A DNA stretch of 64,000 nucleotides, taken from the NCBI RefSeq assembly GCF_014526325.1, contig NZ_JACNMJ010000002.1, forward strand, positions 62,001 to 126,000, read 5' to 3'. The DNA is from Psychroserpens algicola (GTDB lineage: Bacteria > Bacteroidota > Bacteroidia > Flavobacteriales > Flavobacteriaceae). Below, piece after piece: positions 58,732 to 60,809 of this stretch (within the stretch, counting starts at the first letter, position 1; every line of letters starts with the position of its first letter). The translations under genes were made by a program, and so were the position numbers. The notes beneath the pieces were generated by a model. That model searched no databases. It worked only from the letters and a program-made list of their open reading frames with translations, and was not told the origin of the DNA.

Positions 58732-58750
58732 CAGACAATTATTATTGATT

Positions 58751-59872
58751 ATGGACAAGACATTTTTCGACTTAGGCGTTTCAAAACCTTTGATTAAAGG
58801 ATTGAAAGAACTCAACATAAAACAACCCACTCAAATTCAGGAAGAAGCCATACCTGTGTTGCTTAAAAATGAAAACGACTTTATTGGCTTAGCACAAACA
58901 GGTACTGGTAAAACAGCAGCTTACGGATTGCCAATTCTTCAGAATATCAACCCCAAAAAAGACCATGTTCAAGCTTTGATTTTAGCACCAACACGAGAAT
59001 TGGTGCAACAAATTCAGAAACAGCTATTCAAATTCACCAAATATTGTGATGCTAAAATTTTTGCTGAAGGCGTGTATGGTGGAGAAAAAATGGACATTCA
59101 ATTAAAACGCTTGCAACGTACAACTCATATAATTGTAGCAACTCCAGGGCGATTATTGGATTTTATAGAACGAGGCGAGGTTAACATTAAACACATCGAC
59201 ACATTGGTTTTAGACGAAGCTGATGAGATGCTGAGTATGGGATTTAAGCAGGATTTGAATAAAATTCTCAAATACACAACAGGAACGAGACATACCTGGT
59301 TGTTTTCGGCGACGATGCCTGAAGAGATTCAGAAAATTATCAAAACCTATATGGCTGCTGATGCCATGCGTGTAGAAATTGACAGAAACAGTATTGTGAA
59401 TGCTAATATTTCGCATCATTATATCGTCACTTCAATTAAAGAAAAAGTCAATATCATTACGCGTTTACTAGATAAATATGATGATGACAGAGGTATTATT
59501 TTTTGTAGAACTAAAGCAGGAACCAATCAGCTAACTGAAAAATTAAAAGCAGAAGGCTTTTCAGTCGATGCTTTGCAAGGCGATATGCAGCAAAAAGAGC
59601 GTGATAAGGTAATGCGAGCGTTTAAAAACCAGTCTTTACAATTTTTAGTGTCTACCGATGTTTCGGCTAGAGGTATTGATGTCAACAATCTGGCGTTTGT
59701 GATTCATCATCAGTTACCAGATCAGCTGGACTACTATACCCATAGAAGTGGCCGAACAGCCAGAGCAGGTAAAACAGGTGAGTCTATTGCACTTATTATT
59801 TCTGGTGAAGAGCAGGAAATTCAAAACATCCAAAAGGACCTGGGAATTAAGTTTAAACAAATGACACTTTAA
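58751..59872 (+). CDS. DEAD-box RNA helicase, short form
   Basis: 373 residues from the ATG at 58751. All core motifs: Q-motif KQPTQIQEEAIP, AQTGTGKTAA (I), PTRELV (Ia), TPGRLLDF (Ib), LDEADEM (II), FSATMP (III), IIFCRTKAGT (IV), ARGIDV (V) and HRSGRTARAG (VI). It ends soon after motif VI without an RNA-binding extension, unlike CsdA/DbpA, so its target cannot be assigned. Confidence 0.94.
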   Translation: MDKTFFDLGVSKPLIKGLKELNIKQPTQIQEEAIPVLLKNENDFIGLAQTGTGKTAAYGLPILQNINPKKDHVQALILAPTRELVQQIQKQLFKFTKYCDAKIFAEGVYGGEKMDIQLKRLQRTTHIIVATPGRLLDFIERGEVNIKHIDTLVLDEADEMLSMGFKQDLNKILKYTTGTRHTWLFSATMPEEIQKIIKTYMAADAMRVEIDRNSIVNANISHHYIVTSIKEKVNIITRLLDKYDDDRGIIFCRTKAGTNQLTEKLKAEGFSVDALQGDMQQKERDKVMRAFKNQSLQFLVSTDVSARGIDVNNLAFVIHHQLPDQLDYYTHRSGRTARAGKTGESIALIISGEEQEIQNIQKDLGIKFKQMTL

Positions 59873-59950
59873 TAATTTTTAAAACTTATCGGCAAATTGC
59901 GTGTTTACTAAATAAATTAGTCTACTTTCGCAGCCACTTAAATATGTAGC

Positions 59951-60052
59951 AATACGCATTTAAGTATTACACAAATAGAACTCCTTAGTATGGTCACTAA
60001 GGAGTTCGTCTTTTTACAAAGGTTTTTTCTCCAAACGCTTTTAAATGCGTTA
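59951..60052 (+). ncRNA. Candidate structured RNA or regulatory leader
   Basis: Three hairpins in the 263-base gap after the DEAD-box gene: AATAC/GTATT (59951-59968), a 12-pair stem GAACTCCTTAGT/ACTAAGGAGTTC around 6 bases (59978-60007) followed by T-rich sequence, and AACGC/GCGTT (60034-60051). ACGCATTTAA at 59954 and TTAAATGCGT at 60041 are perfect complements and could pair instead. TACTTTCG at 59922 is promoter-like. Confidence 0.35.
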
Positions 60053-60135: not shown

Positions 60136-60759
60136 ATGAAAATAGGAGTTATAGGAAGTGGAAACATTGGAGGAAATTTAGGAAAACATTGGGCTAAAGC
60201 CGGACATGAGGTATTGTTTAGCAGTAGACATCCTGAAGAGTTGAACGATTTAGTTCGGTCGTCAGAAGGTAAGGCTAAAGCTATGAGTATTGAAAAAGCC
60301 TTTGAAGCTAATGCTGACGTGTATTTACTAGCTACACCATTTAAAGCCATTGATAGACTATCAGAATTATATGCAGGTGAATACGGAAACAAAGTTATCA
60401 TTGATGCTACAAACCCGTATCCGCAACGCGATGGTGACATGGCAAAAGAGGTAAGAGATAGTAATCGAAATGCTTCAGAATATACAGCAATGAAGTTTAA
60501 TACGGCTAAGACAGCCAAAGCATTTAATACGATTAAAGCTGAAGATTTAAAAAACAGAGCCTGGGATTCATCTCAAAAACTGGCTATTCCTTTTGCTGCA
60601 CAAGATGCCGATAGTAGAGCAGCTACGCAACAATTAATTGAAGATATCGGATTTGATGCAGTATATGTTGGTGATTTAACACAAACATCAATTATGGATC
60701 CAGACCAGAAATTATACGGACAATCGGTTTCTAAACAAGAATTACAAGATATGATATAA
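60136..60759 (+). CDS. NADPH-dependent F420 reductase-like oxidoreductase
   Basis: 207 residues. Rossmann motif GSGNIGGNLGKHWAKAGH at 7-24, then SSRHPEEL and DATNPYPQRDG. This is the NAD(P)-binding F420 reductase-like family, which in Bacteroidota cannot use F420 and has unknown substrates. It closes with the bidirectional terminator at 60777. Confidence 0.87.
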   Translation: MKIGVIGSGNIGGNLGKHWAKAGHEVLFSSRHPEELNDLVRSSEGKAKAMSIEKAFEANADVYLLATPFKAIDRLSELYAGEYGNKVIIDATNPYPQRDGDMAKEVRDSNRNASEYTAMKFNTAKTAKAFNTIKAEDLKNRAWDSSQKLAIPFAAQDADSRAATQQLIEDIGFDAVYVGDLTQTSIMDPDQKLYGQSVSKQELQDMI

Positions 60760-60776
60760 TGTATCAATTACGTCAT

Positions 60777-60809
60777 AAAAAAAGACTACCAATTAGTAGT
60801 CTTTTTTTT
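60777..60809. terminator. Bidirectional Rho-independent terminator
   Basis: A-tract, then AGACTAC paired with GTAGTCT around CAATTA, then a T-tract. It separates the convergent reductase and hydrophilic-protein genes. Confidence 0.9.

What the first reader, a model, noticed from the sequence alone, without database searches (positions are those of the whole stretch)
59951..60052. Possible RNA with mutually exclusive pairings
Two small hairpins flank a strong 12-pair hairpin, and the loop region of the first (ACGCATTTAA) is exactly complementary to part of the third (TTAAATGCGT), allowing a long-range closing stem or a kissing interaction. It has T-rich stretches and an upstream TACTTTCG box. 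It may be a small RNA or a switch controlling the reductase gene at 60136.
Basis: seen in the sequence. Interest (0 to 1): 0.5.

Follow-up and report, generated by a model that had tools for sequence, protein, structure and literature searches.

The report
New conserved flavobacterial small RNA gene
Between two unrelated genes of a flavobacterium lies what looks like a gene for an RNA of about 82 letters, with its own start and stop signals and a two-hairpin shape preserved in related bacteria, which is probably an uncatalogued small regulatory RNA rather than a switch for the next gene.

Summary
The conserved unit is 59935-60016 (+), about 82 nt: hairpin 1 (59936-59965, 13 stem positions, one mismatched, GCAA cap), a linker containing GUAUUACACA, and a 12-bp hairpin with loop AUGGUC and a T run (59978-60015), an intrinsic terminator. 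A Bacteroidetes-type -7 box (TACTTTCG, 59923-59930) predicts a start at 59935. Covariance models found 18 copies in 18 genomes of 5 Flavobacteriaceae genera (9 of 23 genomes in the window's genus). Over these, 10 of 25 pairs show changes on both sides and 99.1% of cells pair; 18 of 18 copies have TAnnTTTG or TAnnTTCG at one distance although the promoter was not modelled. The ACGCATTTAA/TTAAATGCGT pairing is exact but lies past the terminator and occurs in 1 of 18 copies. The reductase follows in 1 of 9 genus copies and also occurs without the RNA. Rfam has no match. Best reading: an independent, probably trans-acting sRNA. No target was found, so the mechanism is inferred; expression is untested.

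The parts
59916..59930 (+). Promoter: -7 box TACTTTCG (59923-59930) with an ATTAG element just upstream (59916-59920); no consistent -33 TTG
   Evidence: 18 of 18 homologues have TAnnTTTG (11) or TAnnTTCG (7) at the same distance; TTG somewhere in an 11-base -33 zone in 7 of 18. ATTAG seen by eye in many rows, not counted. Sigma-A box TAnnTTTG at -12 to -5 per passages of PMC9723704.
59935..60016 (+). sRNA gene, about 82 nt; start predicted from the -7 box
   Evidence: R1 match 106.9 bits (the window is one of the model's own sequences); 18 homologues; 71-95% identical to the 17 others while the next 100 bases are 45-59% identical
59936..59965 (+). Hairpin 1: 13 stem positions (one A.C mismatch here), GCAA tetraloop 59949-59952
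   Evidence: 98.3% of cells paired, 5 of 13 pairs with changes on both sides over 18 sequences
59964..59973 (+). GTATTACACA, invariant in 18 of 18; last two bases of hairpin 1 plus the start of the unpaired linker; candidate seed or protein site
   Evidence: alignment A5
59978..60015 (+). Hairpin 2 (12 bp, loop ATGGTC) and T run: intrinsic terminator of the sRNA, probably also of the upstream helicase gene (inferred)
   Evidence: terminator scan; 100% of cells paired, 5 of 12 pairs with changes on both sides
59988..59997 (+). GTATGGTCAC, loop of hairpin 2 with its two closing pairs, invariant in 18 of 18; candidate second contact site
   Evidence: alignment A5
60041..60050 (+).
   Evidence: complement to hairpin 1 present in 1 of 18

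Best explanation
59935-60016 (+) is a stand-alone small RNA gene. RNA polymerase starts at a TAnnTTTG-type promoter, makes an RNA of about 82 nt whose 5' end is folded into a capped hairpin, and stops at hairpin 2 with its U tail (supported by conservation and covariation; transcription itself not shown). The most likely mode of action is in trans: the exposed invariant linker GUAUUACACA..., with or without the invariant hairpin-2 loop AUGGUC, contacts mRNAs by imperfect base pairing, possibly with an RNA-binding protein (inferred). Where it lies behind the DEAD-box helicase gene, its terminator probably also ends that mRNA (inferred).
For: Model R1 from 9 genus sequences found full-length copies in three other genera at E 1.3e-14 to 3.0e-12; R2, rebuilt with those, found a fourth. 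Covariation on 18 sequences: 51 cells with changes on both sides and a covariation score of 0.381, neither reached by any of 500 shuffles; 10 pairs with changes on both sides, reached by 1 of 500; slid controls 1-11 cells. Promoter box at the same place in 18 of 18 although outside the model. RNA block conserved, downstream not. Neighbours differ: helicase locus in the genus, other loci in 4 genera. One match per carrier genome. By inspection of A5 no reading frame fits: stem bases change in compensating pairs.
Against: No transcript data. 'Further standard pair types' is reached by 89 of 500 shuffles on the 18-row alignment (0 of 500 on 12 rows). A4 and A5 were fitted to the model's structure, and the rows are related. 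Target search negative: exact complements of GTATTACACA in 6 genomes (59 sites, 6 of them the sRNA; reversed control 61) and of GTATGGTCAC in 8 genomes (28 sites, 8 of them the sRNA; control 21) showed no convincing shared site at an orthologous gene start. Patchy: no match in 14 of 23 genus genomes and in most of the family sample. No consistent -33 element.
Confidence: 0.6

Rival explanations
1. A protein-binding RNA: the two invariant, similar stretches GUAUUACAC and GUAUGGUCAC are recognition sites of an RNA-binding protein that the sRNA titrates or carries, rather than antisense seeds.
For: Both stretches are invariant in 18 of 18 while the stems around them drift; no convincing conserved target for either.
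Against: No protein partner known; neighbours give none; only exact 10-mers were tested, and real sRNA seeds are often shorter or imperfect.
Confidence: 0.25
2. Only a transcription terminator or 3' element of the upstream DEAD-box helicase mRNA, with no function of its own.
For: In all 9 genus copies it lies directly behind the helicase gene on the same strand.
Against: 8 of the 17 genus genomes with this helicase lack it; 4 other genera carry it at other loci; hairpin 1, linker and the promoter box are conserved, which a terminator does not need.
Confidence: 0.07
3. Riboswitch or attenuator in the leader of the reductase gene at 60136.
For: Terminator upstream of the gene on the same strand; a long-range complement to hairpin 1 that the predicted fold of the longer stretch uses.
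Against: Long-range complement in 1 of 18; reductase follows in 1 of 9 genus copies, four different downstream contexts; reductase behind the helicase without the RNA in L053 and L055.
Confidence: 0.03
4. A remnant of a mobile element or a phage RNA.
For: Patchy distribution and different genomic sites in different genera.
Against: One match per carrier genome; no match in plasmids or phages, nor for one exact 24-base pattern in viral contigs. Repeat borders were not searched for.
Confidence: 0.04

Closest known systems
Rfp independent transcripts of Flavobacterium psychrophilum, e.g. Rfp18 (PMC9723704, passages seen)
   Same: Intergenic, structured RNAs of the same bacterial family, in a genome whose sigma-A promoters carry TAnnTTTG; Rfp18 is reported as required for precise protease expression
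   Different: Their sequences could not be read here, so identity was not tested. The paper's independent transcripts have a median length of 176 bp against about 82 nt here; predicted pairing of Rfp18 is in its third stem-loop, whereas this RNA has two.
GibS of Bacteroides thetaiotaomicron (PMC7366714, passages seen)
   Same: Intergenic Bacteroidetes sRNA with a likely terminator, acting by base pairing in an organism without an obvious Hfq or ProQ
   Different: About 145 nt with a mainly single-stranded 5' seed region; here the 5' end is a stable hairpin
6S-flavo (RF01685), Flavo-1 (RF01705), Bacteroidales-1 (RF01693) (table in PMC2864571, passages seen)
   Same: RNA motifs of Bacteroidetes
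   Different: No match to any of 4227 Rfam families at gathering score; at E up to 5 only three hits to unrelated families, E 0.5-3

Membership tests
Trans-encoded intergenic bacterial sRNA | Own promoter | tested here: met
   TAnnTTTG or TAnnTTCG at fixed distance in 18 of 18; -33 TTG not consistent; activity not shown
Trans-encoded intergenic bacterial sRNA | Intrinsic terminator at the 3' end | tested here: met
   (by sequence)
Trans-encoded intergenic bacterial sRNA | Conserved structure independent of neighbouring genes | tested here: met
Trans-encoded intergenic bacterial sRNA | Pairs with target mRNAs through an exposed seed | tested here: inconclusive
   No convincing conserved exact 10-nt site; shorter or imperfect seeds not tested
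Trans-encoded intergenic bacterial sRNA | Detected transcript | not testable with these tools
   No RNA-seq available
Riboswitch / attenuator | Fixed association with a regulated downstream gene | tested here: not met
Riboswitch / attenuator | Conserved mutually exclusive pairings | tested here: not met
Any Rfam 15 family (incl. 6S-flavo, Flavo-1) | Score at or above the gathering threshold | tested here: not met
Rfp18 of Flavobacterium | Sequence similarity to Rfp18 | not tested

The most novel reading that the evidence does not exclude
The RNA carries two versions of one recognition word, GUAUUACAC in the linker and GUAUGGUCAC in the terminator loop, and both bind the same partner, a dedicated RNA-binding protein of Flavobacteriaceae. 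That would make it a new kind of protein-sequestering or chaperone-guided sRNA in an understudied family of bacteria.
Probability: 0.15. Interest if true: 0.6.

Novelty: new member of a known kind. Interest (0 to 1): 0.38.

Why it matters
My five paper searches returned one paper that maps small RNAs of a member of the Flavobacteriaceae, Flavobacterium psychrophilum. This candidate has borders, a structure, a promoter box, 17 homologues and two invariant contact candidates, so a deletion and a pull-down can be designed directly. It also illustrates that a terminator next to a gene can be the 3' end of an independent RNA rather than part of that gene's regulation.

Tried and rejected
Rejected: reductase switch and long-range or kissing pairing. 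Rfam hits at E 0.5-3 taken as chance: two on the minus strand (snoRNA and Streptococcus sRNA models) and one microRNA model on the plus strand outside the RNA. Three weak model hits (L030-L032, 33-35 bits) were dropped: plain hairpins without the linker or loop word. Eight antisense matches of the same hairpins were dropped before counting, and the resulting alignment A3 was not used. Small peptide from the AUG in the hairpin-2 loop: rejected by inspection, the bases behind it change as compensating pairs.

Led nowhere: target search with exact 10-mers. Of the orthologous pairs of sites, two have a following frame within 200 nt in both members: L090/L096 (inside a 153-aa frame, 114 nt before a 179-aa frame; methionine sulfoxide reductase-like, name recalled), which I take as conserved coding sequence, and L064/L072 (78 nt before a 61- or 63-aa frame), which lies antisense within a 266-aa frame. 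Some sites lie shortly before a plausible gene start in one genome only (for example L079, L094; L132); not pursued. Helicase tree for gain or loss: 5 changes by parsimony on a mostly unresolved tree, only 1 forced, so gain and loss cannot be told apart. Papers: no report of this RNA seen in five searches. 6S RNA was not looked for elsewhere in the genome.

Limits: family and order searches scored 11-15 candidates per genome with strict filters, and the genus search 150 of 469-916 candidates, so absences are soft; the samples overlap.

Full report
Setting. The window lies in a genome of 3.8 Mb. The flanking genes are a DEAD-box helicase (58745-59872; Pfam DEAD and Helicase_C) and an F420_oxidored-type reductase (60136-60759).

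What is there. A DNA search of the 23 genus genomes, the window's own included, found matches in 11. In 9 of these the match covers at least 59915-60015; the other two (L010, L011) are short matches that do not hold the RNA. The alignment shows a block that begins around the promoter box and ends at the T run; beyond it little aligns. (L007 was entered there in the wrong orientation; it is turned round from then on.) The block holds two hairpins. Hairpin 1 is 59936-59965: ACUUAAAUAUGUA-GCAA-UACGCAUUUAAGU, 13 positions with one A.C mismatch. Hairpin 2 is 59978-60007: 12 Watson-Crick pairs, loop AUGGUC, followed by GUCUUUUU, which a terminator scan picks up. Folded alone, the RNA gives these two hairpins at -26.5 kcal/mol, z -6.0.

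Conservation of structure. On 9 genus sequences, 5 of 25 pairs have changes on both sides (3 of 500 shuffles reach this). The covariance model R1 finds 9 of 23 genus genomes. In 299 genomes of the family it finds two of the genus plus three strong hits in three other genera (88.6, 82.3 and 76.9 bits) and three weak ones that I dropped. Model R2, built from 12 sequences, finds 6 of 397 family genomes, including one of a fourth further genus; 1 of 296 order genomes, the window's own; 5 of 6 genomes of G388's genus, G388 included; 1 of 1 of G162's; and 2 of 40 relatives of G218, G218 included, both among the 4 searched of its genus. In all, 18 genomes of 5 genera, one match each. On these 18, 446 of 450 cells (99.1%) form standard pairs and 10 of 25 pairs show changes on both sides (51 cells; the pair count is reached by 1 of 500 shuffles, the cell count by none). 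No shuffle of 500 equals the covariation score, and slid controls score 0.045-0.093 against 0.381. One measure, further pair types, is not beyond shuffles (89 of 500). The alignment was fitted to the model, but L027-L029 fold by themselves into the same two hairpins (L027 with an internal loop in hairpin 1 and three pairs closing around both hairpins, L029 with a small extra 5' pairing).

Promoter and borders. The models begin at 59935 and contain no promoter. Yet 18 of 18 copies have TAnnTTTG (11) or TAnnTTCG (7) directly upstream at the same distance; a TTG in the -33 zone is seen in 7 of 18. PMC9723704 (passages) places the flavobacterial sigma-A box TAnnTTTG at -12 to -5, which puts the start of this RNA at 59935, the base before hairpin 1. 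Identity to the window is 71-95% in the RNA for the 17 others, against 45-59% in the next 100 bases and 48-98% in the 40 bases upstream.

Independence from neighbours. In the 9 genus copies the RNA follows the helicase, but the next gene is the reductase in 1, a small protein that by eye resembles the window's PepSY-like one in 1, a helicase-like gene (name from motifs, recalled) in 6, and a convergent gene in 1. In the other genera it lies at different loci; in several it is near a gene that resembles YifB/ComM (name recalled). Of 23 genus genomes, 17 have this helicase at E <= 1e-150. Eight of those lack the RNA at that locus even with filters off (best match 16.7 bits, E 0.18), and in two of them the reductase lies behind the helicase (129 nt in L053, about 700 nt in L055). 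RNA and reductase are therefore decoupled.

ACGCATTTAA and TTAAATGCGT are exact complements, but the second lies about 25 bases past the T run. In the 17 homologues the longest exact complement of hairpin 1 in the next 120 bases is 5-8 nt; the closest relative, L026, has 6. Shuffles give 10 or more in 13 to 29 of 2000. The fold of the longer stretch does use this pairing, but the RNA is predicted to end before it. I read it as a mild coincidence.

How it may work. The stems change while keeping their pairs. What does not change is GUAUUACACA across the end of hairpin 1 and the linker, and GUAUGGUCAC in the loop and closing pairs of hairpin 2 (18 of 18). These are the candidate contact sites. 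Their exact complements are not enriched: 53 sites besides the sRNA against 61 for the reversed control in 6 genomes, and 20 against 21 in 8 genomes. No convincing site at the start of orthologous genes was found. Trans antisense action by a shorter or imperfect seed remains my first choice because it is the common mode of such RNAs (general knowledge); a protein-binding role is second. I put about 0.85 on 'independent sRNA gene' in either mode and 0.6 on that plus trans pairing.

Known or new. No Rfam 15 family matches. No match was found in plasmids or phages, nor for one exact 24-base pattern in viral contigs. Literature searches showed no report; the Rfp sRNAs of F. psychrophilum could not be compared because supplements cannot be opened here. 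I rate it a new member of a known kind.

Noticed in passing
L055 (G022), downstream of the helicase stop: Array of near-repeats of the ACGATTTGGGATT / ACGATTAACGATT kind between the helicase and the reductase, seen by eye.
   Followed up: no
window 60780-60809: A second terminator-like hairpin (AAAAGACTAC CAATTA GTAGTCTTTTTTTT) behind the reductase gene, seen by eye.
   Followed up: no
window 59916-59920 and the same place in homologues: An ATTAG element just upstream of the -7 box is shared by many copies (by eye) while a -33 TTG is present in only 7 of 18; possibly a promoter variant.
   Followed up: partly
L027-L029, L033-L038: In other genera the RNA sits at loci near a YifB/ComM-like gene, a small secreted-protein gene or a hydrolase-like gene (names recalled), suggesting that the RNA or its neighbours moved.
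   Followed up: partly
   Followed up: no
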